Shown here: positions 5,810 through 28,050 of the stretch, piece after piece | How the letters are laid out: each line of letters starts with the position of its first letter | Numbering within the stretch: position 1 is the first letter of the stretch | From: Actinobacteria bacterium UBA4719 | GTDB taxonomy: Bacteria > Actinomycetota > Actinomycetes > Actinomycetales > Dermatophilaceae | NCBI GenBank assembly: GCA_002404345.1 | Contig: DHJN01000021.1 | Span: 1,900-32,164, forward strand | Reading direction: 5' to 3' | DNA length: 30,265 bases | Notes under the pieces: model-generated | Told to the model about the DNA's origin: nothing | The model's input: the letters and a program-made list of their open reading frames with translations, nothing else | Database searches by the model: none | Program-made: the position numbers and the translations under genes

Positions 5810-5901
5810 ATGTTCACCTTCCCATGCCTGATCCCTCCATCATGGTGCATCGAAAGCGTTCGCGAATCGCTTCCACCTGCGCCGGCGGAGTGTCAGGCCG
5901 G

Positions 5902-6501
5902 TCAGCCATCGGACTGGTGCGACGTGACCCGGCGAACGCCCAGGACGGACTGGGCGATGGAGGTGGCAGCTGCTCGCTCACGGTCCGAGGCAGTCCCCGT
6001 GATGTGCACCACCCCACTGGTGACCTCCGCGTGCCATCCCTGCAGACCGATTTCTCCGAGGATCCGGGATATCTCCGCGGAGATCTCCCTGTCGGGTCGG
6101 GCCATTGCCCGGATCACGTCACTTCGGCTGACGACGCCAAGGAGCGACTCGCCACGGACCACGGGCACGCTCTTCCACGCCGTACGAGCAAAAGTGTGGG
6201 CGAGCTCGGCGACGTCGCTGTCCTCCCGCACTGTGTGTGGACGCGCCGTCATCACCTGACCCACCGTGGATGGCAATGGTCCGGACGATGAACGGGCCAA
6301 TCGCAAATGTGCTCTGGGATCCGGCTCCAGATCTGCTTTGAGCAGATCAGCCTCGCTGATGATGCCGACCAGGAGCCCGCCACTGTCCACGACAGGAAGT
6401 CCGGTCACCTTCGCCCTCGCCATGAGCTGCAGCGCTGCTTCCAGCGACGCGTCCTCGTGCACGCTGTATGCCGGGCTGGTCATGATCTCGCGAACAAGCA
6501 T
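5902..6501 (-). CDS. CBS-pair protein with C-terminal BON-like domain
   Basis: A 199-residue protein with two CBS motifs, usually an adenine-nucleotide-sensing regulatory pair, followed by a BON-like domain. CBS1 spans about 5-60 (REIMTSPAYSVHEDASLEAA to VGIISEADLL); CBS2 about 75-130 (VGQVMTARPHTVREDSDVAE to LGVVSRSDVI); the tail (about 138-195, WHAEVTSGVVHITGTASD) resembles a BON fold. I chose the ATG at 6501, preceded by AAGGGAG about 10 bases upstream, rather than an in-frame start at 6576 whose extra 25 residues do not resemble the family. CBS proteins of this type (like Hrp1) are strongly DosR-induced in mycobacteria; a DosR-like motif lies upstream. Confidence 0.88.
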   Translation of the reverse strand: MLVREIMTSPAYSVHEDASLEAALQLMARAKVTGLPVVDSGGLLVGIISEADLLKADLEPDPRAHLRLARSSSGPLPSTVGQVMTARPHTVREDSDVAELAHTFARTAWKSVPVVRGESLLGVVSRSDVIRAMARPDREISAEISRILGEIGLQGWHAEVTSGVVHITGTASDRERAAATSIAQSVLGVRRVTSHQSDG

Positions 6502-6568
6502 GTCAGTCACTCCCTTGAACACCACAACGTCCTGCGGCCAGCATGTTTGGCCGCAGTAACGTAAGACA

Positions 6569-6582
6569 GTGACCAACGTCCC
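6569..6582 (-). promoter_or_regulatory. DosR-box-like motif upstream of the CBS-BON gene
   Basis: On the minus strand this reads GGGACGTTGGTCAC, matching 11 of 14 positions of GGGACTWWAGTCCC. It lies 67 bp upstream of the ATG at 6501, in the short gap after the DevS gene. Identified by eye. Confidence 0.5.
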
Positions 6583-6587
6583 GCGGG

Positions 6588-8427
<1,840 letters not shown>

Positions 8428-12926: not shown

Positions 12927-14186
12927 TCAGTTTTCCCATCCGCGGGACAGGGCGGCCGCGGCCGCCCGTCGCCCCAGCTCGATTCCAGCCGCGAAGTACC
13001 CCTCATCGAAGAACAAGTAGCTGAGCAGCTCGCGGCGTCCCAATGCATCCCCAGCGCCGCGGATGGCCTGCCCGACCAACCAGTTGTCCATCGCGGTGAG
13101 CCGGCCGAGACCATTGGTTCGGCGCTCGAAGACCTCCGCTGCACACCGTCCCATCTCGCCGGGGGGCGGGGACACCGCCATCACGTCGATCTGCCGGTAT
13201 GGGCGACCTTGGCTGCCGGTCAGCAGGTCTGGCCGACCGGCTTTACACGCCTTTGCCACCAGCCGGTTGGTGCGACGCAACGAATGCAGGTCCTCTGTCG
13301 TCCGGTCGGCGAGGGCGGCATGCAGGACCTGCGCAGCCGCGTCGGCGATATCGGGGCTCTGGTTCGTAAAGTCGGGTGGTGGCGGTGGACCATAGGTCGT
13401 GGCGGTCGCCGAGACGAGCACGACCTTGGATGCGCCCAGGCCAACCGCTGGGTGCAGCGGAGTGTTGAGCCGGACCCCGCCGTCCAGATACCAGCCAGTG
13501 GCGTGCTCGGGCTCGGTGATCCGCACCGGGGGGAAGGCCACCGGGATCGCCGAGGACGCCAGCACGTGGCCGGGGGTCAGGGGTCCGCGCACCACGTCCA
13601 GGGCCCGGTCCCGAAATCCGCCATAGTCGCTGGCAACGTGTTCGTCCAGGAACAGCACGCTGCGCCCGCTCGCCTCGCCGGCGACGGTGCTGTCCGACTC
13701 GGCTGGCATCCGGGTGGCGATCACACCCACGGCGGCCAGCACACCGCCCGCGACGTTGGCGGCCAGCTGCTGGGTCTGAAGCTCGTCGGCTGCGGTCCGG
13801 CGTAACGGTCCGGTGTCCAGCAGGCTCGATGCCCCAGGGCCGATGCCGAGGAACGCGCCGGCGGCATACTGCAAGCCGGTGAGTGCCGACGAGAACGACA
13901 ACAGCCGTCGGTACACGTGTTCGTCGCTCATCTGCCGCCAGACCCCAATCACCTCCTCGGCGGCCTTCTCGGCACCCAGGTGCGCCACAGACCCCCATAG
14001 AACGGCGTTGATGCTGCCTGCGCTCGTGCCGAGCCAGATCGTCGGCGTCAACCCGTCGCGCTCGAGTGCCGGGATCAGCTCAGCCAGCGCCCCGGCCTGG
14101 AAGGCGCCACGCGCGGCCGCTCCGGACAGGACGACCGCGACCGTCCCGGTGTCCCCATTGTCGCTCGACCTCGACCGTGTGGCCAT
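12927..14186 (-). CDS. Patatin-like phospholipase
   Basis: A 419-residue patatin-family acyl hydrolase using a Ser-Asp dyad to cleave lipid esters. VVLSGAAARGAFQAGAL (about 18-34) is the glycine-rich oxyanion loop, LGTSAGSINAVLWG carries nucleophile Ser55 in G-x-S-x-G, and YLDGGVRLNTPLHPA gives the D-G-G motif with the catalytic Asp. There is no signal peptide. I chose ATG 14186 with GGAGG 8 bases upstream; a longer in-frame ORF to 14345 adds 53 atypical residues. It faces away from the DUF4352 gene, leaving a 199-bp divergent region with an inverted repeat. Confidence 0.9.
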   Translation of the reverse strand: MATRSRSSDNGDTGTVAVVLSGAAARGAFQAGALAELIPALERDGLTPTIWLGTSAGSINAVLWGSVAHLGAEKAAEEVIGVWRQMSDEHVYRRLLSFSSALTGLQYAAGAFLGIGPGASSLLDTGPLRRTAADELQTQQLAANVAGGVLAAVGVIATRMPAESDSTVAGEASGRSVLFLDEHVASDYGGFRDRALDVVRGPLTPGHVLASSAIPVAFPPVRITEPEHATGWYLDGGVRLNTPLHPAVGLGASKVVLVSATATTYGPPPPPDFTNQSPDIADAAAQVLHAALADRTTEDLHSLRRTNRLVAKACKAGRPDLLTGSQGRPYRQIDVMAVSPPPGEMGRCAAEVFERRTNGLGRLTAMDNWLVGQAIRGAGDALGRRELLSYLFFDEGYFAAGIELGRRAAAAALSRGWEN

Positions 14187-14273
14187 GCTGACCCTCCTGG
14201 TGAGCCCGCCTCGCCACCCTGCGCGGCGTCGGCTTGGATCCACCGTAGTCAAGACAACACCCCGCGGACTGCC

Positions 14274-14287
14274 ATGACATACGTCAT
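14274..14287. promoter_or_regulatory. ATGAC-N4-GTCAT inverted repeat in a divergent promoter region
   Basis: A perfect 5+5 inverted repeat (ATGAC ATAC GTCAT), followed by a related CGACAT, lies between the divergent patatin and DUF4352 genes. It is a candidate operator; no regulator is encoded nearby. Confidence 0.35.
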
Positions 14288-14385
14288 ACGACATAACACC
14301 CGATTCGGCGCATAACGGGAGTAGATATGACTTTGGTGGGAGCACCAGGCGCCTGCCCGGAAACTCATTACGGGCGGGAAGAGAA

Positions 14386-17187: not shown

Positions 17188-17382
17188 GTTCTCAGCCTCC
17201 TCGAATTCCCCTCACGACGAAAGCCCAGAGTGGGGCAACAGCTCCTGTTTCGTTCGCCCCGTCAATTCTGATTGAGCCGGCTCGGCGCGAGAACGTCATG
17301 CGCGCGATGTTTGGGAGGGGGTTGTCAGCTGACGGGGAACTTCGAGGCATCAGTGGCCCCGGCACGAGTTAGGCTGCCCCGT

Positions 17383-18711
17383 ATGAGGAGTGGGGGCCAT
17401 GCAAAATGGTGGTTGATGGCCACGACCTTGTGCTTTGGGCTCGCGGCCTCGAGTTGCGCAGGATCGTCGGAGTCATCCTCACCCCCGTCGTCCGCGGTGG
17501 CCACAGTCCGGGCCTCAACACTGCCTGCGGAGGCGACCTCAACGACGGTCACGTCCGCGGCATCGAGTCAGAGCAAGCCAACCAGGACGACCGGGTTGGG
17601 CGCGACGCCATCGCCGACGGCGATCTTCGCCCCTACCTCGCCAGCCCCTGCTGCGACCACTGACCCCGCTGTCCGAATGCTCGCCGCCATGAGCCAGCAG
17701 CAGCGCGTCGGCCAGCTGATCATGGTCGGCACCAAGGCGACCGGTGCCTCGAGCTCGACGCTGAGCGCGATCAGTAACTACCACGTCGGCAATGTGATCC
17801 TTACCGGTCGCAGTACCCTCGGGATCGCTTCCACCACCAGGGTCGTTGCGCGACTGCGCGCGCGGACCACTGTGTCCGCGACGGCGAAGGTCGGCCTGTT
17901 TGTAGCCACAGACCAAGAAGGCGGAAAGGTGCAAGTTCTTAGCGGGCCGGGGTTCAGCACCATTCCCAGCGCACTGACGCAGGGCGTCTGGGCCACGTCG
18001 ACTCTGCGCGCTCGCGCGGCCACCTGGGGCAGGCAACTGAGATCGGCCGGCGTGAACGTCAACCTGGCCCCGGTCACTGACACCGTGCCACACGCCACAG
18101 CCCAGTCCAATCGACCCATCGGCTTCTACCAGCGGGAGTTCGGCTTCACCACAGCTGTGGTCGGCCCGCACGCTTCCGCCTTTGTTCAAGGCATGCAATC
18201 CGCCCGTGTTGCAGCCACGCCGAAGCACTTTCCCGGCCTGGGGCGGGTCATGGGCAACACCGACACAACAGCTGGTGTCACGGACTCGATCACCACCCGC
18301 ACGAGCACCTACCTGGGACCTTTCCGGCAAGCGATCGCGGCGGGGGCGCCCTTCGTCATGATGTCGAGCGCGTACTACTCGAAGATCGACTCCAACCACC
18401 CGGCGTGCTTCTCGCGCGTGGTCGTGACCGGCATGTTGCGTGGCGACCTTGGATTCCAGGGAGTGGTCATCAGCGACGACCTCGGCCGCGCCCAACAGGT
18501 CGCGCGCTGGTCCGCGGGCTCACGAGCGACGCAATTCATCGCAGCCGGCGGGGACGTGGTCCTGACCGTCGACCCAGCGCTGGCTCCCGCGATGGCGGAG
18601 GCCATCGCAGCCAAGGCGAACAGCAGCGCTTCCTTCCGAAGGCAGGTCGACAGTGCGGCGCTTCGCGTACTGCGGGCCAAGGCTGCGACGAGCCTGCTAC
18701 CGGTGACCTGA
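17383..18711 (+). CDS. Glycoside hydrolase family 3 lipoprotein (NagZ/LpqI-like)
   Basis: Surface lipoprotein of 442 residues that probably removes N-acetylglucosamine from cell-wall fragments. The N-terminus has RSGGHAKWW, a hydrophobic core and a lipobox ending AASSC, followed by a Ser/Thr/Pro-rich linker to about residue 105. The GH3 domain then shows QQRVGQLIMVG, FVATDQEGGKVQVL, KHFPGLGRVMGNTDT and the candidate nucleophile Asp in GVVISDDLG. KHFPGLG rather than KHFPGHG is as I recall it for mycobacterial LpqI. I chose ATG 17383: TAGGCT at 17370-17375 lies 7 bases upstream, suggesting a leaderless mRNA. The divergent gap to 17187 also holds the palindrome GTCAGCTGAC at 17324. Confidence 0.88.
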   Translation: MRSGGHAKWWLMATTLCFGLAASSCAGSSESSSPPSSAVATVRASTLPAEATSTTVTSAASSQSKPTRTTGLGATPSPTAIFAPTSPAPAATTDPAVRMLAAMSQQQRVGQLIMVGTKATGASSSTLSAISNYHVGNVILTGRSTLGIASTTRVVARLRARTTVSATAKVGLFVATDQEGGKVQVLSGPGFSTIPSALTQGVWATSTLRARAATWGRQLRSAGVNVNLAPVTDTVPHATAQSNRPIGFYQREFGFTTAVVGPHASAFVQGMQSARVAATPKHFPGLGRVMGNTDTTAGVTDSITTRTSTYLGPFRQAIAAGAPFVMMSSAYYSKIDSNHPACFSRVVVTGMLRGDLGFQGVVISDDLGRAQQVARWSAGSRATQFIAAGGDVVLTVDPALAPAMAEAIAAKANSSASFRRQVDSAALRVLRAKAATSLLPVT

Positions 18712-18890: not shown

Positions 18891-18919
18891 CTGACAGTCC
18901 CCATGAACACGCATAAAAT
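18891..18919 (+). promoter_or_regulatory. Sigma-70-type promoter A of the ubiquitin-like cassette
   Basis: CTGACA, a 17-bp spacer, and TAAAAT: one mismatch from consensus in each hexamer with optimal spacing. The same elements are present unchanged in copy B although the spacer differs. Transcription would start near 18926, about 210-220 bases before the RING gene start. Confidence 0.7.
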
Positions 18920-18921
18920 TT

Positions 18922-18935
18922 GAGGTAGGCACCTC
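18922..18935 (+). promoter_or_regulatory. GAGGT-N4-ACCTC inverted repeat at the predicted start site, copy A
   Basis: Perfect 5-bp arms around AGGC begin 3 bp after the -10 hexamer. In copy B the arms are identical but the loop is AAGG, so the symmetry survived while the centre changed. It is a candidate operator or 5' mRNA hairpin. Confidence 0.5.
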
Positions 18936-19110
18936 TATAGGCTTTGAAGGGGCGCGAAGACTGCGTGTCTGACAATCTTTCGGGAGCGTGCAGCTGTGAT
19001 TGACGTGGCAATCGTTCCCCCGTGGCTTCCGGTCTGAGCTCGGCGGTCGTCCGTGTTTTTTTCACTCAGCGTTGACCGACCTAGGACGGTAGTGTCCGCG
19101 ACTGAGCCGT

Positions 19111-19123
19111 ATCCGATGCGGAT
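19111..19123 (+). promoter_or_regulatory. Small hairpin just before the ribosome site, copy A
   Basis: ATCCG-ATG-CGGAT ends 5 bases before GGGGAG at 19129-19134. It is identical in copy B (21525-21537). A 5-bp stem here could modulate access of ribosomes, but it is short. Confidence 0.3.
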
Positions 19124-19145
19124 CTAGGCGGGGAGCGTGGAGGCT

Positions 19146-20030
19146 GTGATCGACAGGGCGGTCTGCGCGTACTGCCAGACTGAGATGGATCGGGTGACCG
19201 CCGCTCGCTGTCCGGATTGCGATGCGGTGCATCACCAAGACTGCTGGCAGGACAATGGCGGATGCGCCGTTCTCGGCTGTGCCGCGGGTCCGGATGGAAC
19301 GACTCTGGAACTGACAGCATCAGCTCCGCCGGCGGGCCTGCCCACCAGCACCATGGGCGTGCCTGCGTCGCCTATTCAAGCATCGTTTGGCAACGCTTCG
19401 CTGACCTCGACTGAAGCGAATAGGCGGTATTGCACCCACTGCGGCCACGACCTGGCCGGCGGCGCGGGGTTCTGTATTCACTGCGGCGAGCCCGTCGCTG
19501 CTGGGTCTCCGACTCGAGGAGTCGCCGCGGCGAGTATGCACTCGGAACCGTCGGGTCTTGCATCGGAGATCCCGACACCCGCGTGGCATGAGGTCACCGC
19601 CAAGTTGCGCGCCAACGGGGGCAACCGGACCAAAGGTATCGCCGCCATCACCGTCGTCCTGCTTGCAGCCGCCGCATTCCTCATCTTCGGTGGCGGCGAG
19701 AAGCACACCGTCACGGGCAACATGTCTTTGACCACAGGCAGCGACCTGACTACTGGATCGTCGTGCGAAGGCTCGAGCGGATTCAGCGACGTCGCTTCCG
19801 GAACCCAGGTCATCATCGAGGACGACTCCGGAAAGACTCTGGCCACGAGTGCGTACGGGTCCGGCGTCTTCGACGGCACGTCGTGCGTGTTTGAGTTCAC
19901 CTTCAACGCTGTGACGAAGTCTGCGTTCTACCGCGTCCATTCCGGCAGCAACCGCGGCGTGGTGCAGTTTTCGTACCAGGAGATGGTCGACAACAACTGG
20001 TCCGTCCACCTCACCCTCGGAGACGGCTAA
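19146..20030 (+). CDS. Membrane-anchored RING-like (Prok-RING) and zinc-ribbon protein, candidate E3
   Basis: A 294-residue protein. Residues 7-45 form a cross-brace-like cysteine array, C7-x2-C10, C22-x2-C25, H29/H30, C33-W34, C40, C45, resembling the prokaryotic RING finger family. A second zinc ribbon has C96, C99, C110, C113. One helix at about 164-180 (IAAITVVLLAAAAFLIF) follows a basic segment, so the zinc domains should be cytoplasmic and the C-terminal 110 residues (two Cys, beta-rich) outside. In eukaryotes RING domains bring E2 to substrate, and an E2 is encoded nearby; E3 activity is inferred. I chose GTG 19146 because it is conserved in the duplicated copy and is 11 bases after GGGGAG; GTG 19137 is too close to that site and out of frame in the copy. 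Confidence 0.85.
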   Translation: MIDRAVCAYCQTEMDRVTAARCPDCDAVHHQDCWQDNGGCAVLGCAAGPDGTTLELTASAPPAGLPTSTMGVPASPIQASFGNASLTSTEANRRYCTHCGHDLAGGAGFCIHCGEPVAAGSPTRGVAAASMHSEPSGLASEIPTPAWHEVTAKLRANGGNRTKGIAAITVVLLAAAAFLIFGGGEKHTVTGNMSLTTGSDLTTGSSCEGSSGFSDVASGTQVIIEDDSGKTLATSAYGSGVFDGTSCVFEFTFNAVTKSAFYRVHSGSNRGVVQFSYQEMVDNNWSVHLTLGDG

Positions 20031-20033
20031 TTC

Positions 20034-21170
20034 ATGTCGGTCCTGTCCCGGGCGGCGAAGGCGTTCCGCCGCTCTGCCCCCCGAGCCGACACCGATGAGG
20101 GCGGACGCGATCTGCTCGATGATCTCCTCGCGAGTCAGCCAGCCAATTCCGAGATCGCCGGCGCCGAAACAGGGCATGGAAGTACCAACGCCGGCAGGTG
20201 GCTGGCTCGGCTGCGTGCCGGGCTGCCTGACCACATACCAGCAACGACTGCCGCCGCCATCCTCCTCGCCGCCGGTGCCGCTACCCTGTTCGCCCCATTG
20301 CCTGGCAGTTCTTCCCCGACCGGACTGTCAGCACTGACCGCGGCACCGGTTCCCAAACCATCGGACACCGCGCCCCAGCCGGATCAGGACCTTGTCAACG
20401 CCGACATCGCTGCCGTGGCGGCTGCGCAGCTAAGCGCCGACGACACCCAGGCTGAGGTCACTCAGGCAGAGGCAGCGCGTGAGGCCGCGGCCGCGCTGCA
20501 GACCAAGGCCGACGACGCGCAGTCAGCCGCAGACAGCGCCAGCAGTAGCGACACTTCGTACACCGTGACCGGCGACCAGTCCACGGTCGACTACGACAAG
20601 CAGGCCCTTCAGGGGGCTCAGGACAGCCTGAAGTCTGCCCAGGACATGCTGGCGCTCGACCAGCAGTACGGATTAGACACCTCGTACGACACCCAGGCCG
20701 TCGCCGACGCGCGGACCGCAATCAAGGATGCGCAAACCACCCTGGACACAGACACTGTGCAGCTCGCGGCCGACCAGAGCGCCGCCAACAGCGCAACTGC
20801 CACCGCGAAGTCTCAACAGGCCACGGCTGACGCTCTCGCCGGGCAGGCCAAAGGCGCGCAAACTAAGGCAGACGCCAAACTGTCCGACGCGCAGAACTCT
20901 GCGGACGCCGCTGCTACCGCATTGAGCAGTGCCCAGACCACCCAGACCCAGCATCAGCAGTCCGATGCTGCCGTATCCGCCGAGTGGCACCACCAGCACC
21001 GTATGGCGGTGTTCGCCGTCAAGGCCAGGAACACCACCATGGCTGACTACCGCACAGCTGCGGCCAAGAACGTCACTGTGGGAGGCGCCCTCGCCGCATC
21101 CTCGGTCATACTCATCATGCTCGACGTCCTCCCCCGGCGCCGCGGTTCACGAGGTGAGCGCGAGGCATAG
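20034..21170 (+). CDS. Coiled-coil membrane protein
   Basis: A 378-residue protein without a family I recognise. A cytoplasmic, charged N-terminus leads to a first helix at about 68-88. A long Ala/Gln/Asp/Ser-rich region (about 115-325) of heptad-like character follows (QTKADDAQSAADSASSS; QQATADALAGQAKGAQTKAD), interrupted by a TSYTVTGDQSTVDYD segment. A second helix (about 345-365, VTVGGALAASSVILIMLDVL) ends in RRRGSRGERE. Both termini would be cytoplasmic and the coiled coil outside, spanning toward the cell wall. ATG 20034 is 3 bases after the RING gene stop with GGAGA upstream, so the two are coupled. A structural or sensing partner for the cassette is possible. Confidence 0.8.
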   Translation: MSVLSRAAKAFRRSAPRADTDEGGRDLLDDLLASQPANSEIAGAETGHGSTNAGRWLARLRAGLPDHIPATTAAAILLAAGAATLFAPLPGSSSPTGLSALTAAPVPKPSDTAPQPDQDLVNADIAAVAAAQLSADDTQAEVTQAEAAREAAAALQTKADDAQSAADSASSSDTSYTVTGDQSTVDYDKQALQGAQDSLKSAQDMLALDQQYGLDTSYDTQAVADARTAIKDAQTTLDTDTVQLAADQSAANSATATAKSQQATADALAGQAKGAQTKADAKLSDAQNSADAAATALSSAQTTQTQHQQSDAAVSAEWHHQHRMAVFAVKARNTTMADYRTAAAKNVTVGGALAASSVILIMLDVLPRRRGSRGEREA

Positions 21171-21303
21171 GGGGCTTCCCTCGGTATCCACCAAGACGTA
21201 GTTGACAGCCTCGCGCCAGGTGGTACGCGATGGCATCACCGTCGTAGTAGTCAATCCGTGCGCACTGGCGCCTGGGGGATCAGGACCGCTATATCCCGTT
21301 TAC

Positions 21304-21332
21304 CTGACAGTCCCCATGAACGCGCATAAAAT
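21304..21332 (+). promoter_or_regulatory. Sigma-70-type promoter B, before the E2 gene
   Basis: CTGACA, 17 bp, TAAAAT, as in copy A. It would drive the mini-RING, E2, FHA, protease, ubiquitin-like, E1 and JAMM genes separately from the RING and coiled-coil genes. Confidence 0.7.
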
Positions 21333-21334
21333 TC

Positions 21335-21348
21335 GAGGTAAGGACCTC
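21335..21348 (+). promoter_or_regulatory. GAGGT-N4-ACCTC inverted repeat, copy B
   Basis: Arms as in copy A around a different centre, AAGG. It overlaps the predicted transcription start. Confidence 0.5.
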
Positions 21349-21524
21349 TATGGCTTTGAAGGGGCGCGAAGACTGCGTGTCTGACAATCTTTCGGGAGCG
21401 TGCGGCTGTGATTGACGTGGCAATCGTTCCCCCGTGGCTTCCGATCTGAGCTCGGCACACTCGTCCGTGTTTTTTTCACTCAGCGTTGACCGACCTAGGA
21501 CGGTAGTGTCCGCGACTGAGCCGT

Positions 21525-21537
21525 ATCCGATGCGGAT
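21525..21537 (+). promoter_or_regulatory. Small hairpin before the ribosome site, copy B
   Basis: ATCCG-ATG-CGGAT, identical to copy A, ends 6 bases before GGGGAG at 21544-21549. Confidence 0.3.
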
Positions 21538-21558
21538 CTAGGCGGGGAGCGTGAGGCT

Positions 21559-21738
21559 GTGATCGACAGGGCGGTCTGCGCGTACTGCCAGACTGAGATG
21601 GATCGGGTGACCGCCGCTCGCTGTCCGGACTGCACTCAAGAATCCTTCGCCAACGCCTCGCTGACTTCAGCTTGGGCGCCTGTGTCCGTGAGGGTCAACC
21701 GGCTCAGCATGAGGCCGGGACAGGGGAGAAGTAAATGA
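21559..21738 (+). CDS. Mini-RING: 59-residue internally deleted copy of the RING protein
   Basis: GTG 21559, 9 bases after GGGGAG, opens a frame that repeats the first 25 residues of the RING-like protein (VIDRAVCAYCQTEMDRVTAA to CPDC). It then skips exactly 51 codons, resumes with sequence like TQESFANASLTS, and ends in an unrelated tail. The stop overlaps the E2 start (ATGA). It keeps C7-x2-C10 and C22-x2-C25, enough for one zinc site, but lacks the HHxxCW-C-C half of the RING. An in-frame deletion, a kept ribosome site and coupling to E2 suggest it is still translated, as a small protein or simply a leader peptide that feeds ribosomes to E2. A relic is the alternative. Confidence 0.6.
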   Translation: MIDRAVCAYCQTEMDRVTAARCPDCTQESFANASLTSAWAPVSVRVNRLSMRPGQGRSK

Positions 21739-22214
21739 CACCGCGCCAGCGCCGACTTGAGGCGGACCATCGGCAACTCGTTGCTGCTTTCGCGGGGCAC
21801 TCACAAATCCAAGTCCAAGCCCTCGGACCCGTGCCACCTGAACGCTATCGAGTGGTCTATAACCTCCCAGGCCTGCGCCTCGACGAGGCGCGCCGTGTCA
21901 CTCGTGTTTACCAGCACATAGTGGACCTTTACCTACCCGCCGGCTACCCGCGGGAGAAACCGTACGCCACGACGGCCGCCCCCGTGTTTCACCCGAACTT
22001 CGGCGCGCACGTCTGCATTGCCGACTTCTGGAGCCCTTCCCAGTCCCTTGTCGACGTCGTACTGCAGATCGCTGACATGCTCCAGTACCGCGTGTACAAC
22101 GTCCGGTCTCCGTTAAACGCGGTTGCCGCCCAATGGGCGACAGAGAACGCGCACCAGCTGCCAATCGCCAACATCGACACGATGCCGGTCGATCCGGTAG
22201 TCACGCTCGCATGA
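21735..22214 (+). CDS. E2-like ubiquitin-conjugating enzyme (UBC fold)
   Basis: A 159-residue cytoplasmic protein with the E2 core: strands ending in HIVDLYLPAGYPREKPYA, the H86-P87-N88 motif in VFHPNFG, and candidate catalytic C94 in HVCIADFW, six residues after the Asn, the spacing of classical E2s. A W and the SLVDVVLQIADMLQYR helix follow as in UBC folds. It should accept the ubiquitin-like protein from the E1 at 24668 as a thioester. ATG 21735 overlaps the mini-RING stop. There is no membrane segment. Bacterial E2s are known from conjugation operons such as Bil and CBASS type II, but no cyclase or phage-defence gene is seen here. Confidence 0.9.
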   Translation: MTPRQRRLEADHRQLVAAFAGHSQIQVQALGPVPPERYRVVYNLPGLRLDEARRVTRVYQHIVDLYLPAGYPREKPYATTAAPVFHPNFGAHVCIADFWSPSQSLVDVVLQIADMLQYRVYNVRSPLNAVAAQWATENAHQLPIANIDTMPVDPVVTLA

Positions 22215-22250
22215 TCCGGCAACCAGCCGCCAAGACCCCCGGGAACCACC

Positions 22251-23450
22251 ATGTCTGAGACCGTACCCATACCCGAACCGGCATCGGCATTGCCCACAGG
22301 ACCACTCCCCACCGGCTCAGCACCGGTCCAGATCAGCTGGGACGACCTGAATAGCGACTCAGTCAATGCCCGGGTCGAGCTGATCCGGACGGCCCGAGAG
22401 GTCCCGCTCATCCAGCCGGTCGGTGCGCCCGTCCTCACCGGCGCATCCGGCCCGATGGGCTGGCTGCGCGGCTCGGTCGGGGCCCTGGCCCTCGCTGGGC
22501 TGGTTGGGGCGCTCGTGACCTGGGGACTGGTCGAGGGGGTGCTGCAGGCGGGGGCTGACACCCACTGGTACGGAGACTCCGCAACTACCGGCAACGTCCT
22601 GTTCACCTTGGCGTTCGCGCTCGGCATCGGTCTGGTCGTCTCTGGGTGGGAAGGCATCCAGGCGCGCAGCCGGGCCAAGACGCAAGCCGCCCTCCTCAAG
22701 GCAACCCCGGTCCTAGTCGGCGGCGGCCTCGTGGGCGGGTTCATCGCGAGCTCCGTGTACGGGTCGATGACCAGCGGCATCATCGCCGACGCGTACGCCG
22801 CGGTAACCAGTCAGGGCAGCAGCGCCGTCGACGCCGAGCAGATCTTCACGCAGTACGTCCAGGACCACTTACACCTTCCTCGCGGGATCGCAATCGGACT
22901 AGTCGGCGTCGCCGTCGGTGCTGCCCTCGGCGCCGCCAGCAGGTCCACGCGCCGGGCGCTCAACGGCGCGATCGGTGGGTTCGTCGGTGGGTTCGTCGGC
23001 GGGTTCCTGTTCGACTACATCGGCTCCGGTTCCGGCTCCGGGGCCATGCCGCGACTTGTCGCCATCGTGGTCACCGGCGTTCTGGTCGGTCTGTCGATGG
23101 GACTGGTGGAGACCGCTCGCCGCGAAAACTGGCTTGAGATCGTCTCCGGCGGCATGGCCGGAAAGCAGTTCATCCTCTACCACCAGCAGACCGTGATCGG
23201 GTCGGGTGCCGACTGCCACGTCACCCTCATCAAGGACCCTGCGATCAGCCCTCAGCAACTGCAACTGACCCAGAGCGCAGGTGGTCTGACCGCACGTAGC
23301 CTCGATCCGCAGCGGCCGGCGCAGGTCAACGGCATCGCCATTGTCGAACAGACACTGGCCGACTCCGACCTGCTCCAGGTTGGCTCGACGGTCCTTCGCT
23401 ACCGGTCGAAGGCGGCGGCCGCCCCGCTGCCTGGAGCCATCCACGGGTGA
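22251..23450 (+). CDS. Polytopic membrane protein with degenerate C-terminal FHA domain
   Basis: A 399-residue protein: a cytoplasmic N-terminus (1-72), about six Gly-rich helices (about 74-96, 114-134, 150-172, 211-230, 237-256 with GGFVGGFVGGF, 267-287) and a C-terminal FHA-like domain (about 305-385). In the FHA part, VIGSGADCHVTL replaces the usual G-R pair with G317-S318, and AISPQQLQL keeps S333 but lacks the His of S-x-x-H; N360-G361 is kept. Phosphothreonine binding is therefore doubtful and a plain protein-protein role is more likely. ATG 22251 is 36 bp after the E2 gene; its stop overlaps an unused GTG of the next frame. It may be the membrane platform for the enzymes. Confidence 0.85.
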   Translation: MSETVPIPEPASALPTGPLPTGSAPVQISWDDLNSDSVNARVELIRTAREVPLIQPVGAPVLTGASGPMGWLRGSVGALALAGLVGALVTWGLVEGVLQAGADTHWYGDSATTGNVLFTLAFALGIGLVVSGWEGIQARSRAKTQAALLKATPVLVGGGLVGGFIASSVYGSMTSGIIADAYAAVTSQGSSAVDAEQIFTQYVQDHLHLPRGIAIGLVGVAVGAALGAASRSTRRALNGAIGGFVGGFVGGFLFDYIGSGSGSGAMPRLVAIVVTGVLVGLSMGLVETARRENWLEIVSGGMAGKQFILYHQQTVIGSGADCHVTLIKDPAISPQQLQLTQSAGGLTARSLDPQRPAQVNGIAIVEQTLADSDLLQVGSTVLRYRSKAAAAPLPGAIHG

Positions 23451-23497
23451 CTCCCTCACCCCTGACCCACTCGCCTACTCGAAGGAGGCAATGCATC

Positions 23498-24400
23498 TTG
23501 CTCACGCGTCCCCGGTTAGTCGTCCTGATCGCGGCGGCATGCGCCGCCACCCTGGCTCTGATGCTGGCTGGGCCGGCTACGGCGTCGACGAGCGATCCCG
23601 TCGCTCTGGCGACGGCGGGGGTCGCCGTTGTGAACGCCGCAGATGGCGTGGGCACCGCGTTCGCAGTAGCCGACGGGGTGCTGCTCACGGCTGCCCACGT
23701 CGTTGGGGTCGAGACCACCGTGCAGGTAACCGCCGGCGGAAAGACTGTGACCGCGCGAGTGGAACGGACCTCCCCTGCCCTCGATGTCGCTCTTCTCTCC
23801 ACGACGTTGCACCTCACCTCGCTGTCACTGCGCACCCATGCGCCGCGCCTCGGCGAGCAGGTCTACGCGGTCGGGGCGGCCCTCGGCGACCTGTCGGTGA
23901 CCCGTGGCGTCGTTTCCGGTCACCGCGACGCCTCCGGGTTCTCCCACGTTCAGACCGACGCCGCGATCAACCCCGGTAACTCTGGTGGGCCGCTGCTCGG
24001 CGACGACGGCCAGGTGATCGGGCTCGTCGTAAGCAAGTTACGTGACGCCGAGGGCATCGCGCTGTGCGTCTCGGCCGCCGACCTGAACACGTTCCTGAAC
24101 GCAGGGCCGAGCCCGACACGGGCCGCAGGAGAGAAGCCTACGAATCCGCCCGCTGCGGCACAGGGGTCGGGTGCTGCACCGAAGGGCTCGACCAACAAGA
24201 ACGATGGCACACAGCCATGGTGGTGGCTGGCGCTTCCCGGCGCGGGCCTGGCATATCTCGTTCTCGCCCGGCCGCGCGGTGTTCGGGTACGGCTCGGGCC
24301 AGCCCGAGCAGTAGCACCGGTACAGACCGGAACAGAGCCCTACAACAACTCGACCGGCGTCACCCCCAGTTCTCAGCCAGCTACAACGAAGGACCGATGA
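23498..24400 (+). CDS. Secreted, membrane-anchored trypsin-like (HtrA-type) serine protease
   Basis: A 300-residue PA-clan protease. A signal sequence (about 1-32, LVVLIAAACAATLALMLAG then PATAS) leads to a catalytic domain with H67 in LLTAAHVVG, D96 in ALDVALLS and S162 in INPGNSGGPLL: triad complete. No PDZ domain follows; instead a Pro/Gly/Ser linker and a C-terminal helix (WWWLALPGAGLAYLVLA) anchor it, with the catalytic part outside. The start is TTG 23498, 9 bases after GAAGGAGG; ATG 23491 is out of frame and GTG 23447 has no ribosome site. It lies 1 base before the ubiquitin-like gene. An outside protease in a cytoplasmic conjugation operon suggests cross-membrane signalling, an inference. 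Confidence 0.88.
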   Translation: MLTRPRLVVLIAAACAATLALMLAGPATASTSDPVALATAGVAVVNAADGVGTAFAVADGVLLTAAHVVGVETTVQVTAGGKTVTARVERTSPALDVALLSTTLHLTSLSLRTHAPRLGEQVYAVGAALGDLSVTRGVVSGHRDASGFSHVQTDAAINPGNSGGPLLGDDGQVIGLVVSKLRDAEGIALCVSAADLNTFLNAGPSPTRAAGEKPTNPPAAAQGSGAAPKGSTNKNDGTQPWWWLALPGAGLAYLVLARPRGVRVRLGPARAVAPVQTGTEPYNNSTGVTPSSQPATTKDR

Positions 24401-24401
24401 A

Positions 24402-24671
24402 ATGTCTGTACTGAACCTGACCATCACCGATGTCACAGGCAGCAAGGAGCAGTCGGCCGCTGTGCCTGGCGATGCACCGGTCATTCGCGTCATCGCCAAG
24501 CTCATCGAGTTGATGCAGCTGCCACTGACCGGACCCGACGGGCAGCCCCTGTCGTACAGGTTCCATCACCGCGGTAGCGGTCGCCAGCTGCGTGACGATG
24601 ACACCCTCGCCCAGGCCGGCGTCACCGATGGCGACACCCTCCGACTCGTGGCCGAGATCACCGCAGGATGA
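24402..24671 (+). CDS. Ubiquitin-like protein (YukD/EsaB-like beta-grasp)
   Basis: An 89-residue beta-grasp protein, the likely modifier. MSVLNLTITDVTG is strand 1; VIRVIAKLIELMQLP the helix; LSYRFHHRGSGRQL and LRDDDTLAQAGVTDGDTLRLV the second half, typical of YukD/EsaB-like domains. It ends EITAG: a single C-terminal Gly after Ala, with no tail to be removed, so the E1 could adenylate it directly. ATG 24402 has GAAGGA 8 bases upstream; the stop overlaps the E1 start. YukD proteins usually serve type VII secretion, but no ESX gene is present here, while E1, E2 and JAMM genes surround it. Lys residues are few (K13, K34). Confidence 0.88.
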   Translation: MSVLNLTITDVTGSKEQSAAVPGDAPVIRVIAKLIELMQLPLTGPDGQPLSYRFHHRGSGRQLRDDDTLAQAGVTDGDTLRLVAEITAG

Positions 24672-25861
24672 CCGCTCCCATGGTGACGCTGGACGCGACC
24701 GCGACCGACGGGCGCTACCATCGCCAAGAGCTCATCAGCTGGTGGGACCAGTCCCGGCTGAGCAATGCTCGCGTGCTCATCGTGGGTGCCGGTGCGCTCG
24801 GCAACGAGATCGTCAAGAGCCTCGCTCTGCTCGGCGTCGGACACCTCGACATTGTTGACATGGATAAGGTTGAGCACGCCAATCTGGCGCGCTGTGTGCT
24901 CTTTCGCGATGGGGACGAGGGCCGACCCAAGTCAGAAGTCGTCGCGGCAGCAGTTGGCACACTCAACCCTGATGTCACCGCGGTCGCCCACACCGTGCCC
25001 GTCCAGCAGCTCGGCCTCGGGTTCCTCAACGAAGTCGACCTGGTCATCGCCGGTCTGGACAACCGTGAGGCGCGTCTGTGGGTCGGGCAGAGCTGCCGCA
25101 AGCTCGGCCAGCACTGGGTCGACGGTGCGATCGAGGGCCTGCGCGGTCTGGTCCGGGTATTCCTGCCGGAGGGTGCGTGCTATGAGTGCACGCTCGGAGA
25201 GACGGACCGCAAGATCATGGCGCAACGGCGCGCGTGCGCGCTGCTGTCCGCCGAGGAGATGCACGGAGGCAAGGTACCGACCAACGCGACCACTGCGTCG
25301 ATCATCGCAGCCATCGAGGTGCAGGAGGCTGTCAAGCTGATTGTCGGCCGAGGTGACCTCCTCGCCCTGCGCAACAGTGCCCTCATGTACATCGGGGAGA
25401 CCCTAGAGACCTACCGGGTTACCTATGCCGAGGACGAGTTCTGCCCCTCACACGACCGGTACGAAGACCTCCTCCCGTTCGCGGTCACCGCTGAGACATC
25501 CCTCGCTGACGTCGTGACCGCAGGCCACGTCCGGCTCGGGGAGCACCTCGATGCAGTCGAGCTCGAGGACGATCTCATCGTTGCCTCACGCTGCGGCAGC
25601 TGCGGGCACAACGCACCAGTCCTACGCAGCCTCAGATCACTGCGCCCCGGCGACGGGCTCTGCCCAGCGTGCGGGGAAGAGCTGACCCTTGACGCGCGCC
25701 GGGTCCTCGACCCCACGGACAAAGTCCTCGCCGCTCGGCTGCTGGACCTGCACCTGGCCGACCGTGACGTCATCACGGTGCGCGCCGGGAACCGCCGGGC
25801 CCATTTCGCGCTGAGCCCGGCGCTGGGCACCCCAGGGGTCTTCCAGGAGGGCAGCCGATGA
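24668..25861 (+). CDS. E1-like activating enzyme (ThiF/UBA3-like) with extra zinc ribbon
   Basis: A 397-residue cytoplasmic adenylating enzyme. The Rossmann core has VLIVGAGALGNEIVKSLALLG (about 36-56), DMDKVEHANLARC with the acidic and Asn/Arg residues that bind ATP-Mg, K88 in GRPKSEVV, and LDNREARLWV. C171-x2-C174 start a zinc site, possibly completed by a later CPSH. C190 in RRACALLSAEE aligns with the catalytic Cys of UBA3/NEDD8 E1 (ACIECTL followed by PMCTIAS), then GGKVPTNATTASIIAAIEVQ is the conserved crossover helix. A C-terminal zinc ribbon (CGSCG and CPACG) is added at about 320-345. It should charge the ubiquitin-like protein and pass it to the E2. The start overlaps the modifier stop; the stop overlaps the JAMM start. 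Confidence 0.92.
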   Translation: MTAPMVTLDATATDGRYHRQELISWWDQSRLSNARVLIVGAGALGNEIVKSLALLGVGHLDIVDMDKVEHANLARCVLFRDGDEGRPKSEVVAAAVGTLNPDVTAVAHTVPVQQLGLGFLNEVDLVIAGLDNREARLWVGQSCRKLGQHWVDGAIEGLRGLVRVFLPEGACYECTLGETDRKIMAQRRACALLSAEEMHGGKVPTNATTASIIAAIEVQEAVKLIVGRGDLLALRNSALMYIGETLETYRVTYAEDEFCPSHDRYEDLLPFAVTAETSLADVVTAGHVRLGEHLDAVELEDDLIVASRCGSCGHNAPVLRSLRSLRPGDGLCPACGEELTLDARRVLDPTDKVLAARLLDLHLADRDVITVRAGNRRAHFALSPALGTPGVFQEGSR

Positions 25862-26778
25862 ACGTTCTACAGGAGCGGGCGCGCGCGGTTCTGGCCGGGA
25901 TCGAGGCACACGCATTCTCCGACACCCGCACTGAGGTCGGCGGGGTCCTTGTCGGCAATCTGGATGAGGACGGGCCGCGGGTCCTCGCGGCACTGCCGGC
26001 GCTCAAGGCGATCGGCGGACAGACAAACGTCACCTTCACTCACGAGGTCTGGGACGAAGTGCTCGACCTGATCGACCGGGACCATCCCGGCCAGCACATC
26101 GTCGGCTGGTACCACACCCACCCAGGGTTCGGACTGTTCCTGTCCGAGTACGACATGTTCATCCATCGCAACTTCTTCACCGACCCCCGCATGGTCGCCC
26201 TCGTCGTCGACCCGCTCGCCGGCGAGCTCGGCTGGTTCGGCTGGGACGGCGACGAGGTCATCCTCCAGGAGCAGCACCCCACCGCACGGGCCGCCTTGCG
26301 TGCCGTCAGTGCCGACAGCACGGCATCAGTAGCGGCCACTGCCCAGCGGCGCCGGCCCGCCGCTCTGGTCGCCGTCCCGGCCATCGCGATCCTAGGGGCG
26401 ATCGGTGGGTACCTGCTCGGCGCACACACCGCAGATCTGACCGCCGCGACACAGTCTCGGCGCGTCGCGGTCGCTCACGAGCAAACCCAAGCCGCGCGTA
26501 ACGAAGGCGACCGACTGCGTCGGCAGATTGCCGCCGCGACAGCAGCAAAACCAGCGGATGCGACCCCGCCGACCACCGCGCCCGTGAGGACGTCGGCCAA
26601 CGTTCGGTATCGCGTCCAGCGAGGAGACACGCTCTGGGGAGTGGCTCAGGCACTCTATGGGAACGGCAATGCCTACTTGCGTATCACCAAGGCAAACCCC
26701 CACGTACGGGCTCAGGCTTTGTATGAAGGGCAAGTACTGACAGTCCCCCTGGCCGATACCGACATCACAAAGAGGTGA
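25858..26778 (+). CDS. JAMM/MPN peptidase with transmembrane helix and LysM-like domain
   Basis: A 306-residue protein. The JAB/MPN domain (about 1-145) has E26 in TEVGGVLVGN and H86-x-H88-x7-S96-x2-D99 in WYHTHPGFGLFLSEYD, a complete zinc site of active JAMM isopeptidases. After a basic QRRRPA segment a helix at about 164-184 (LVAVPAIAILGAIGGYLLGA) crosses the membrane, then a charged stretch and a C-terminal LysM-like domain (YRVQRGDTLWGVAQALYGN to LTVPL) that would bind peptidoglycan. So the eraser faces the cytoplasm while being tied to the wall. ATG 25858 has GGAGG 8 bases upstream and overlaps the E1 stop. It probably removes the modifier from targets. Confidence 0.92.
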   Translation: MNVLQERARAVLAGIEAHAFSDTRTEVGGVLVGNLDEDGPRVLAALPALKAIGGQTNVTFTHEVWDEVLDLIDRDHPGQHIVGWYHTHPGFGLFLSEYDMFIHRNFFTDPRMVALVVDPLAGELGWFGWDGDEVILQEQHPTARAALRAVSADSTASVAATAQRRRPAALVAVPAIAILGAIGGYLLGAHTADLTAATQSRRVAVAHEQTQAARNEGDRLRRQIAAATAAKPADATPPTTAPVRTSANVRYRVQRGDTLWGVAQALYGNGNAYLRITKANPHVRAQALYEGQVLTVPLADTDITKR

Positions 26779-26784
26779 CCAGCG

Positions 26785-28050
26785 GTGGCTGAGCTCTTCA
26801 TCCGTTGCCCGAGTTGCAGCTCGGAGGCGGCACCTGGAACCGCCTTCTGCGGCAACTGCGGAGGTCGAATTCCTGAGGCGGCGGCTGAGCTCTTCATCCG
26901 TTGCCCGAGTTGCAGCGCGCCGGCGTTACCCGGGACCGCCTTCTGCGCTAACTGCGGAAGACACATCGCGGAGGCGGTGGCATCCGCGCCGGCCCTCCCA
27001 CTAGCTCGGCCCATCAAACAACTGCGGTTTCCAGGTGTCTCGCTTGGCGGCTGCGAAAACTGTGGCGCCACCGACCGCGACGAGGACGGCTCCTGCCGAG
27101 CGTGCCAACCAAGAATCACTGAGTACCCCTTACCCGTCTCCCCCCCGCCGGGTGCCACAGCCGGTCTGGCCCCGGGGCCGGAGAGCACCGTCGCTGTCAG
27201 GGGCAACGAGGACCTGCTCCCGGCAGCCGCAATTCGAGCTCGCGATGACGCGATGCCACCCGGCCCTCCAGCGGTCCGTCACGAAGCAGTTCCCGATCCA
27301 ACGCTGGCTCTTGAATACACAGCAGGAACAGCGCCTCGCCAGGTTCGACAGCAGGACTCTGAGCAACTCCGGCAACACAGGGTGGACGACCGCCAAAGGA
27401 GGCGACCGACGGTCGGCAAGGTCGCCATTGTGGCGGTTCCGCTGCTGGTTGGGGCTTTGGGGGTTGGCTACGGGTTCACCCGAAACCGGGACAGCACTTA
27501 CCGGTCCGGGACGCCCGCTGCGCAGGTGGTGTCGACGACCAGCGGCACTGTGTCAACGCCTGCACCGCAATCGCCTGCATCAGCGTCGCCGATTCCGGTG
27601 AGACCCGCACCCTCGCCAGCGAAGGCCCGCCCTACCACAGACCCAAGCCTCGGACAGCTACAAGCCCTGGTTCGAGGTGACGCGTCATTGGCGGCCAGCA
27701 AACTCGATGGTCGATGGGTCGCGTTTCTGTCCTCCAAGACTGCGGGCATTGTCGATCCGTTGCAGACGACCGAGTCCGGCAGCCACAAGTTCGGTTGGTC
27801 CGACATCCTGAGTGAACACGAACGGTTCCGGGGCGACCCCCGGTTTGATTCCCCGGTATTCCTGATCATGAGCACTACTTTCGGCGCTGCAACCAAGGTC
27901 AACGGTAAGCCGCTCTTCGTGACCGCCGTGGACAACAACTTCCTGAACGCCGCAGACGTCCGATCCTGGTGCGACGTGACGTTCGCTGAGTTGCCGACGG
28001 CTCAGCGGAACAACACATGTTCACCGGCCCAGCTGACTCCCCGCCCCTGA
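26785..28050 (+). CDS. Zinc-ribbon membrane protein with extracellular domain
   Basis: A 421-residue protein, last in the cassette. Two near-identical zinc ribbons (LFIRCPSCSSEAAPGTAFC, NCG; and again) are repeated 32 residues apart, and a third Cys set (CENCG and CRAC) follows at about 90-112. A Pro-rich stretch and basic DRQRRRPTVG precede one helix (about 214-231, VAIVAVPLLVGALGVGYGF). A Ser/Pro linker leads to an extracellular domain (about 285-415, LQALVRGDASLAASKLDGRW; SWCDVTF) of a type seen on actinobacterial surface proteins. GTG 26785 is 6 bases after the JAMM stop with AGAGGTGA upstream. Layout mirrors the RING protein: zinc domains in, ectodomain out. Function unknown. Confidence 0.85.
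   Translation: MAELFIRCPSCSSEAAPGTAFCGNCGGRIPEAAAELFIRCPSCSAPALPGTAFCANCGRHIAEAVASAPALPLARPIKQLRFPGVSLGGCENCGATDRDEDGSCRACQPRITEYPLPVSPPPGATAGLAPGPESTVAVRGNEDLLPAAAIRARDDAMPPGPPAVRHEAVPDPTLALEYTAGTAPRQVRQQDSEQLRQHRVDDRQRRRPTVGKVAIVAVPLLVGALGVGYGFTRNRDSTYRSGTPAAQVVSTTSGTVSTPAPQSPASASPIPVRPAPSPAKARPTTDPSLGQLQALVRGDASLAASKLDGRWVAFLSSKTAGIVDPLQTTESGSHKFGWSDILSEHERFRGDPRFDSPVFLIMSTTFGAATKVNGKPLFVTAVDNNFLNAADVRSWCDVTFAELPTAQRNNTCSPAQLTPRP
26788..26916 (+). repeat. 96-bp internal duplication encoding tandem zinc ribbons
   Basis: A 33-base block encoding AELFIRCPSCS is identical at 26788-26820 and 26884-26916; the rest of each 96-bp unit is similar, encoding PGTAFC and NCG. Identity of silent positions indicates a recent duplication or gene conversion. 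Confidence 0.9.

What the first reader, a model, noticed from the sequence alone, without database searches (positions are those of the whole stretch)
19146..28050. Complete ubiquitin-like conjugation cassette with a candidate RING E3
One strand encodes, within 9 kb, a RING-like protein, an E2 with HPN and Cys94, a YukD-like modifier, a UBA3-like E1 with Cys190, and an active-site-complete JAMM peptidase, plus FHA, protease, coiled-coil and zinc-ribbon membrane partners. E1, modifier and JAMM genes overlap by a few bases. Bacterial E1-E2-Ubl-JAB operons are known (Bil, CBASS type II, and cassettes noted by comparative genomics), but I know of no characterised one with this membrane/cell-wall set, and no cyclase, ESX or phage gene is present. 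Inference: a surface-linked modification pathway.
Basis: partly seen in the sequence, partly recalled or inferred. Interest (0 to 1): 0.95.

Follow-up and report, generated by a model that had tools for sequence, protein, structure and literature searches.

The report
Bacterial ubiquitin-like operon with RING partner
An actinobacterium carries a compact, widely scattered gene set that looks able to attach and remove a ubiquitin-like tag using E1, E2, RING and deubiquitinase parts tied to the cell membrane; the core kind was predicted before, and whether this membrane-bound version works has yet to be tested.

Summary
One strand (19137-28050) carries RING, coiled-coil, E2, FHA-like, trypsin-like, YukD-like Ubl, E1, membrane JAMM and zinc-ribbon genes, with catalytic motifs intact. 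It is not chance: RING, E2, TM-FHA-like, Ubl, E1 and TM-JAMM recur in 6 of 6 loci long enough to hold them, including a Chloroflexi record, and a C4HC3 RING pattern is in 8 of 8 independent loci. In 6 of 8 the intact RING gene directly precedes E2; 4 of 120 listed E2 homologues are RING-E2 fusions; 115 of 120 listed Ubl homologues end exactly in -ITAG. Corrections: the FHA-like domain lacks the canonical Arg (6 of 6); LysM is in 3 of 6 JAMMs; a truncated RING remnant abuts E2 here. Best reading: reversible Ubl conjugation like Caldiarchaeum's, tethered to the membrane. Envelope sensing is inference; no conjugate, substrate or phenotype is known. Bacterial E1/E2/RING/JAB operons were predicted in 2011 (paper not held), so: new variant of a known kind.

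The parts
18891..19225 (+). First copy of a ~330-bp repeat: promoter-like site (CTGACA-17-TAAAAT, 18891-18919), leader and first ~28 RING codons
   Evidence: (blocks 98-100% identical, outermost block 81%), alignment
19137..20030 (+). RING (C4HC3, residues ~10-48) + zinc ribbon + one TM + C-terminal domain, 297 aa; candidate E3
20034..21170 (+). Two-TM protein with a long coiled-coil-like segment between the TMs; no BLAST match among the ORFs picked in the other loci
   Evidence: (no Pfam family)
21304..21640 (+). Second copy of the repeat, with its own promoter-like site (21304-21332)
21559..21738 (+). Truncated RING ORF, 59 aa, keeps only the first four Cys ligands; its TGA overlaps the E2 ATG (ATGA)
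21735..22214 (+). E2 (UBC family), HPN and Cys94, 159 aa
   Evidence: fold of homologue P0030
22251..23450 (+). Multi-TM, glycine-rich membrane protein with C-terminal FHA-like/YscD-like domain lacking the canonical Arg (GS in place of GR)
23447..24400 (+). Trypsin-like (HtrA-type) serine protease with N-terminal signal/TM; triad motifs TAAHV / DVALL / GNSGG (by eye)
24402..24671 (+). YukD-like Ubl modifier, 89 aa, ends -EITAG at the stop codon
24668..25861 (+). E1: ThiF/MoeB-type adenylation domain, Cys190, invariant C171/C174/C259/H262 and C309/C312/C332/C335 (likely zinc sites), UFD-like C-terminal region
25858..26778 (+). JAMM peptidase (cytosolic N-terminal domain by inference) - TM - LysM
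26785..28050 (+). Double zinc-ribbon, one-TM protein
17272..18711 (+). Possible associate: GH3 (NagZ-like) glycoside hydrolase with a signal-like N-terminus, the only GH3 found in this genome; a GH3 gene also follows the RING gene in L008

Best explanation
It is a reversible ubiquitin-like conjugation pathway that works at the cytoplasmic face of the membrane. Proposed steps: (1) E1 adenylates the C-terminal Gly89 of the YukD-like Ubl, which in this genome needs no maturation, and takes it on Cys190. (2) The UFD-like E1 C-terminal region helps pass it to E2 Cys94. (3) A RING protein, encoded next to or fused with E2 in relatives and membrane-anchored in this window, brings E2~Ubl to protein targets at the membrane. 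(4) The membrane-anchored JAMM removes the Ubl. The other membrane proteins (TM-FHA-like, HtrA-like protease, zinc-ribbon proteins) are proposed as docking or signal-input parts, with LysM, HtrA-like protease and GH3 reporting on the cell wall in this lineage. Shown by sequence: parts, intact catalytic residues, Ubl C-terminus, gene coupling, conserved order. Inferred: every reaction, the topology, the targets and the envelope role.
For: Catalytic residues conserved. 115 of 120 listed Ubl homologues end exactly at -ITAG; the other 5 carry 2-7 extra residues after TAG. Of the six locus Ubls, 5 end in AG at the stop codon and L003 has six more residues. The RING pattern is in 8 of 8 independent loci and in 0 of 10 Markov controls. 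The intact RING gene directly precedes E2 in 6 of 8 (L002, L003, L006, L007, L009, L024); in L007 and L009 it overlaps the E2 start by 4 bp, in L003 it is 1 bp away. In L008 RING overlaps the end of the JAMM gene instead; in the window a truncated copy overlaps E2. 4 of 120 listed E2 homologues are RING-E2 fusions. E2 motifs that I place, from memory of the fold, on the loops James et al. link to RING contact are present: YPRxxPY in 113 of 120, CxADxWxP in 111 of 120 (loop roles from passages of PMC5654768). E1 model (pLDDT 90.6) aligns to UBA3, UBA1, UBA7 and SAE2 out to residues 383-389, at 4-8 A rmsd. JAMM profile is closest in PDB to Caldiarchaeum Rpn11 6fjv (2.7e-16); the Ubl profile hits Caldiarchaeum ubiquitin 6fj7 over positions 4-87 (E 8e-4) (identities from PMC6043591). 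JAMM has a TM segment after the catalytic domain in 6 of 6.
Against: No conjugate, substrate or phenotype is known. The Ubl has one terminal Gly, not Gly-Gly. B. subtilis YukD itself is reported not to be conjugated (Iyer 2006, passage). The RING lacks a basic 'linchpin' residue directly after the last Cys in 12 of 12 sequences (alignment; rule recalled), and its Pfam match is below cut-off in 6 of 8 loci. LysM is absent from 3 of 6 JAMMs, the RING has no TM in L003, L007 and L009, and the protease is not in the cassette proper in 2 of 6 loci, so the envelope theme is not universal. The FHA-like domain lacks the canonical Arg. Sporadic distribution (0 of 57 relatives besides the window's own genome; 1 of 395 others in the phylum sample) fits mobile or defence functions too.
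Confidence: 0.62

Rival explanations
1. Anti-phage defence system of the Bil/Bub/CBASS-II kind: the Ubl is conjugated during infection, with protease or membrane proteins as effectors.
For: Same core set (Ubl, E1, E2, JAB) as Bil; patchy distribution; PADLOC E1-E2 and BilD models match the E1 partially (best E 1.7e-17), JAB models match the JAMM weakly (2.3e-5), and RT-Protease_XI models match the trypsin-like domain (5.3e-16); eLife 2020 describes RING-containing Ubl cassettes in bacterial conflict systems (passages).
Against: No PADLOC model matches the E2, Ubl, RING or FHA-like protein at E up to 0.01. No E2 relative in 50,697 phage records or confirmed in viral contigs. No nuclease or cyclase gene noticed by eye beside the cassette in the window. 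Extracytoplasmic domains (LysM, exported protease) are unusual for such systems (recalled).
Confidence: 0.2
2. Assembly or secretion factor: the Ubl acts non-covalently like YukD/EsaB in type VII secretion, with pseudokinase, FHA-like and TM proteins as an export-like membrane complex.
For: The Ubl is of the YukD family; the FHA-like domain best matches a secretion-system domain (Yop-YscD_cpl) in 6 of 6 loci, above cut-off in 5; kinase-like proteins with catalytic loops that look degenerate by eye follow the cassette in L003 and L007, recalling the YukC/EssB pseudokinases (PMC3701619 passages).
Against: No second YukD in the six genomes searched. The Ubl C-terminus is fixed at Gly and sits with E1, E2, RING and JAMM, which a structural role does not need.
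Confidence: 0.08
3. Sulfur-carrier pathway: E1 and Ubl make a thiocarboxylate for cofactor or tRNA synthesis, and the other genes are bystanders.
Against: Separate ThiF-family genes exist elsewhere in the genome; E2, RING and JAMM are conserved with it in 6 of 6 loci long enough to hold them.
Confidence: 0.04

Closest known systems
Caldiarchaeum subterraneum ubiquitin operon (CsUb, E1, E2, srfp RING, Rpn11/JAMM)
   Same: Ubl, E1, E2, small RING and JAMM clustered; the JAMM profile is closest to its Rpn11 and the Ubl profile hits its ubiquitin among solved structures; its RING acts as E3 in vitro (PMC5654768, abstract and passages)
   Different: CsUb ends in Gly-Gly plus a pro-peptide; no TM-FHA-like, protease or membrane JAMM described in the passages read; archaeal
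Bacterial RING/E1/E2/JAB/Ubl operons predicted by Burroughs, Iyer and Aravind 2011
   Same: Per a review passage citing it, related operons occur sporadically in Actinobacteria, Planctomycetes and Acidobacteria (PMC4197634); from memory its abstract says YukD-like Ubls may be conjugated
   Different: Paper not held, so I cannot say whether this exact cassette, its membrane set or RING-E2 fusions are in it
Bil (BilABCD) and Bub systems
   Same: Ubl, E1, E2 and a specific protease in one operon (passages)
   Different: BilA has two Ubl domains and BilB uses a CEHH motif per PMC11354881; here a single YukD-type Ubl, HPN-type E2, RING and membrane partners
RING-containing Ubl cassettes of FtsH-ternary conflict systems (eLife 2020)
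   Same: JAB, E1 and prokaryotic RING with an E2 (passages)
   Different: There the Ubl is combined with E2 and coupled to EAD1, with AAA+/vWA partners; here RING may be fused to E2 and the Ubl stands alone
Cyanobacterial plasmid cassette of Crinalium pCRI9333.03
   Same: E1 (34% identity over 81% of the query), an 85-aa protein with a weak YukD match (E 0.06), E2 and JAB in a row
   Different: No RING pattern in the 19-kb stretch; Ubl-like protein ends EGGY; no TM-FHA-like gene named in the annotation (not searched by profile)

Membership tests
E1-E2-RING-JAMM ubiquitin-type conjugation operon (Caldiarchaeum/Burroughs type) | E2 with HPN and catalytic Cys | tested here: met
   HPN in 120 of 120 listed homologues; Cys94 invariant in 27 of 27 aligned
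E1-E2-RING-JAMM ubiquitin-type conjugation operon (Caldiarchaeum/Burroughs type) | E1 with adenylation domain and catalytic Cys | tested here: met
   ThiF 171 bits; Cys190 in 50 of 50 aligned
E1-E2-RING-JAMM ubiquitin-type conjugation operon (Caldiarchaeum/Burroughs type) | UFD-like C-terminal domain on E1 | tested here: inconclusive
   Alignments to UBA3/UBA1/UBA7/SAE2 run to model residues 383-389, but the domain was not modelled or searched alone
E1-E2-RING-JAMM ubiquitin-type conjugation operon (Caldiarchaeum/Burroughs type) | Ubl with exposed C-terminal Gly | tested here: met
   115 of 120 listed end -ITAG; single Gly, not Gly-Gly
E1-E2-RING-JAMM ubiquitin-type conjugation operon (Caldiarchaeum/Burroughs type) | RING finger linked to E2 | tested here: met
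   RING pattern in 8 of 8 independent loci, directly before E2 in 6; 4 fusions among 120 listed E2s
E1-E2-RING-JAMM ubiquitin-type conjugation operon (Caldiarchaeum/Burroughs type) | Active-site-complete JAMM | tested here: met
   E26, H86, H88, S96, D99 in 6 of 6
E1-E2-RING-JAMM ubiquitin-type conjugation operon (Caldiarchaeum/Burroughs type) | Covalent conjugation demonstrated | not testable with these tools
   needs biochemistry
Bil / Bub / CBASS type II | Hallmark proteins (two-domain BilA, BilB-type E2, Cap2/Cap3, cyclase) | tested here: not met
   PADLOC: only partial E1-E2/BilD and weak JAB matches, none to the E2 or Ubl; E2 is HPN type; single 89-aa Ubl; no cyclase gene noticed in the window by eye. 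Bub models were not searched apart
Type VII secretion (ESX) YukD | YukD next to FtsK-like ATPase and WXG100 genes | tested here: not met
   No such gene recognised beside the cassette; it is the only YukD match in each of 6 genomes. WXG100 and EccC were not searched genome-wide
Canonical FHA (phosphothreonine reader) | pThr-binding Arg (GR motif) | tested here: not met
   GS in 6 of 6; Pfam FHA passes its cut-off in L008 and L009 only; motif rule recalled
Canonical RING E3 | Eight zinc ligands in cross-brace order | tested here: met
   C4HC3 ligands in 12 of 12 aligned sequences; three-dimensional cross-brace not verified
Canonical RING E3 | Basic linchpin residue after the last Cys | tested here: not met
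   none in 12 of 12 directly after the last ligand; criterion recalled, and some active RINGs lack it (recalled)

The most novel reading that the evidence does not exclude
A bacterial ubiquitin system whose E3 is the E2's own RING partner, translationally coupled or fused, and whose deubiquitinase spans the membrane with a wall-facing domain, so that cell-wall state sets the level of Ubl modification of membrane proteins. This would be a transmembrane, envelope-sensing ubiquitin pathway in bacteria.
Probability: 0.3. Interest if true: 0.87.

Novelty: new variant of a known kind. Interest (0 to 1): 0.63.

Why it matters
The characterised bacterial Ubl pathways named in the papers I could read work mainly in anti-phage defence (PMC12687455 passage) and, as far as I recall, lack a RING E3. 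A compact bacterial E1-E2-RING-JAMM set, with the RING overlapping or fused to E2, would make the minimal form and origin of RING-driven ubiquitylation directly testable in a bacterium, and would show what a bacterium with a Pup-proteasome system (20S subunits found; two neighbouring ORFs look like PafA and Dop by eye) does with a second, ubiquitin-type tag. The membrane-spanning JAMM offers a way by which outside signals could control a cytoplasmic tag.

Tried and rejected
Rejected: chance or mis-annotation (gene order conserved; Markov control). Rejected: ESX association. Rejected: reading the FHA-like domain as a phosphothreonine reader. Weakened: LysM as a defining feature (3 of 6). Corrected during work: my first ORF picker missed the short RING genes in L003, L007 and L009, the Ubl and JAMM genes in L007 and the Ubl in L009; I first took RING to be optional, then a motif scan found it in every locus.

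Led nowhere: viral contigs (10 stretches matched a pattern, none confirmed) and phage records held no E2 relative; plasmids gave one distant E1. NCBIfam gave no family for the RING, coiled-coil, E2 or zinc-ribbon proteins at E up to 0.1. The RING part of the RING-E2 model (residues 1-40 at pLDDT 73-76, then 55) was not spanned by the VIA rows, so the RING fold is untested, and RING-E2 docking could not be measured because coordinates are not given. The search of the class of G369 found only G369 itself (1 of 66). Composition: the cassette's tetranucleotide distances to other stretches of the bin are within the range among those stretches, so there is no sign of foreign DNA, but the test is weak. 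The repeat lies in a metagenome-assembled contig; an assembly artefact is not excluded.

Limits: the homologue lists show the best 120 of 389 (E2), of 206 (Ubl) and of 6898 (E1); counts are for those 120. The E2 alignment A1 used 26 of the 120 listed homologues plus the window; the E1 alignment A5 used 45 of 120 plus the window and four loci. The genome scan used two E2 peptide patterns, so 8 loci is a floor; the phylum search used E up to 1e-15. L003, L004 and L005 are near-identical records and count once; L004 was not scanned for RING as it starts within E2; L011 lies within L024. The kinase-like proteins' degenerate loops and the protease triad were judged by eye. The TM counts are simple hydropathy.

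Papers: Burroughs 2011 and those behind PMC12145246, PMC11476048, PMC12885553 and PMC2732565 are not held; what I say of them is recalled or from citing papers. PMC5654768 and PMC4327156: abstract and passages. PMC6043591, PMC4197634, PMC4571572, PMC7159879, PMC11354881, PMC12687455, PMC3701619, PMC1779556: passages only (plus listings). PMC4327156 says that none of the bacterial genomes it analysed had a complete Ub toolkit. Searches made for this cassette in print; no listed title names it, but subscription papers are not covered.

Full report
What is there. The + strand from 19137 to 28050 encodes nine proteins: RING/zinc-ribbon/TM (297 aa), two-TM coiled-coil-like (378), E2 (159), multi-TM protein with an FHA-like tail (399), trypsin-like protease (317), YukD-like Ubl (89), E1 (397), JAMM-TM-LysM (306) and double zinc-ribbon TM (421). 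FHA/protease, Ubl/E1 and E1/JAMM genes overlap by 4 bp; E2 to the last gene looks like one transcription unit (gaps of at most 36 bp). E2, Ubl, E1, JAMM and protease pass Pfam cut-offs. The RING falls below its Pfam cut-off here but carries all eight C4HC3 ligands.

The 5' part is rearranged. A ~330-bp repeat holds a promoter-like site, a leader and the first RING codons, at 18891-19225 and 21304-21640; most of it is 98-100% identical, the outermost block less (81% without gaps). The second copy leads into a 59-aa RING remnant (21559-21738) that has lost the His and the last three Cys ligands, and whose stop overlaps the E2 start. So the window keeps one intact RING gene 2.4 kb upstream, followed by the coiled-coil-like gene, and a broken one next to E2. 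The bin is a fragmented assembly (3.77 Mb, 275 contigs, 87% complete), so an assembly artefact is possible.

Is it conserved? The genome scan with an E2 profile gave 8 loci. A phylum sample of 396 genomes matched the window's own and one other, G369; 57 relatives besides the own genome gave none. After merging L003/L004/L005 there are 8 independent loci: window, L002, L003, L006 (titled Chloroflexi), L007, L008 (Solirubrobacter), L009 (Acidimicrobiia) and L024 (G369). In the six long enough to hold the cassette (window, L003, L006, L007, L008, L009) all of RING, E2, TM-FHA-like, Ubl, E1 and TM-JAMM are present; the protease is in the cassette in 4 of 6, with a divergent trypsin-like gene beside it in L006. 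L002 and L024 are cut by contig ends. Homologues in the large protein database are more numerous: 389 for E2 and 206 for the Ubl.

Membrane theme. JAMM has a TM segment after its catalytic domain in 6 of 6; LysM is in the window, L003 and L007, and not found in L006, L008 and L009. The FHA-like protein has 4-6 hydrophobic segments in 6 of 6 and keeps GS where readers of phosphothreonine have GR in 6 of 6, so a phospho-reader role is doubtful; its best Pfam match is Yop-YscD_cpl in 6 of 6. A GH3 glycosidase gene lies 425 bp upstream of the RING gene in the window and is the only GH3 found in that genome; in L008 one of six GH3 genes follows the RING gene, with a possible start 5 bp after its stop. 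That neighbour was picked after the fact, so it is suggestive only. Kinase-like proteins follow the cassette in L003 and L007.

Cell context. The genome has two 20S proteasome-family matches side by side, two ORFs nearby that look like PafA and Dop (by eye), one YukD and other ThiF-family genes. So pupylation and this system probably coexist, and the E1 is not the cell's only ThiF-family enzyme.

What is known. Bacterial E1/E2/RING/JAB operons were predicted in 2011 and said to be scattered in Actinobacteria, Planctomycetes and Acidobacteria (Zuin 2014 passage, citing Burroughs 2011, which I could not read). Grau-Bove 2015 found no complete Ub toolkit in the bacterial genomes it analysed (passage). 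The Caldiarchaeum system has been reconstituted with its small RING as E3. LysM-associated bacterial JAMMs are mentioned and set aside in a figure legend of Fuchs 2018. RING-containing cassettes also occur in conflict systems. I found no paper describing this cassette, but the key 2011 paper is outside the library. I therefore rate it a new variant of a known kind. It works like the Caldiarchaeum system by its parts; it does not meet the Bil/CBASS or ESX membership tests.

Verdict. The finding is real and well chosen. The conjugation reading is likely; the RING partnership is stronger than first stated; the surface or cell-wall reading remains a hypothesis.

Noticed in passing
window 18891-19225 and 21304-21640: Near-identical ~330-bp repeat flanking the RING and coiled-coil-like genes, giving two promoter-like sites and a broken RING copy.
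   Followed up: partly
window 17272-18711; L008 16469-18028: GH3 (NagZ-like) gene beside the RING gene in two unrelated loci; the only GH3 found in the window's genome.
   Followed up: partly
L003 11629-13236; L007 15305-16993: Kinase-like proteins with catalytic loops that look degenerate, downstream of the cassette.
   Followed up: partly
L003, L004, L005: Records titled Bifidobacterium breve MAG, yet the genome behind L003 is listed at 3.7 Mb, which seems too large for that species (recalled); the label is doubtful.
   Followed up: no
L017 8995-12472 (Crinalium plasmid pCRI9333.03): E1, two related small Ubl-like proteins (82 and 85 aa, the second ending EGGY), E2 and JAB next to a conjugation-type gene on a plasmid.
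   Followed up: partly
L018 4341-5516; L007 5729-6655: IS110-like transposase genes some kilobases from the cassette in two loci (judged from sequence by eye).
   Followed up: no
window 12927-14345, - strand: Patatin-like phospholipase ORF about 5 kb upstream, opposite strand (by eye); no sign that it belongs to the cassette.
   Followed up: no
window 5153-8339, - strand: Response regulator, CBS-domain protein and GAF-type histidine kinase resembling a DosR/DosS set (by eye).
   Followed up: no
L020 (G000 C160): 20S proteasome genes with PafA-like and Dop-like ORFs: pupylation genes probably coexist with the Ubl cassette.
   Followed up: partly
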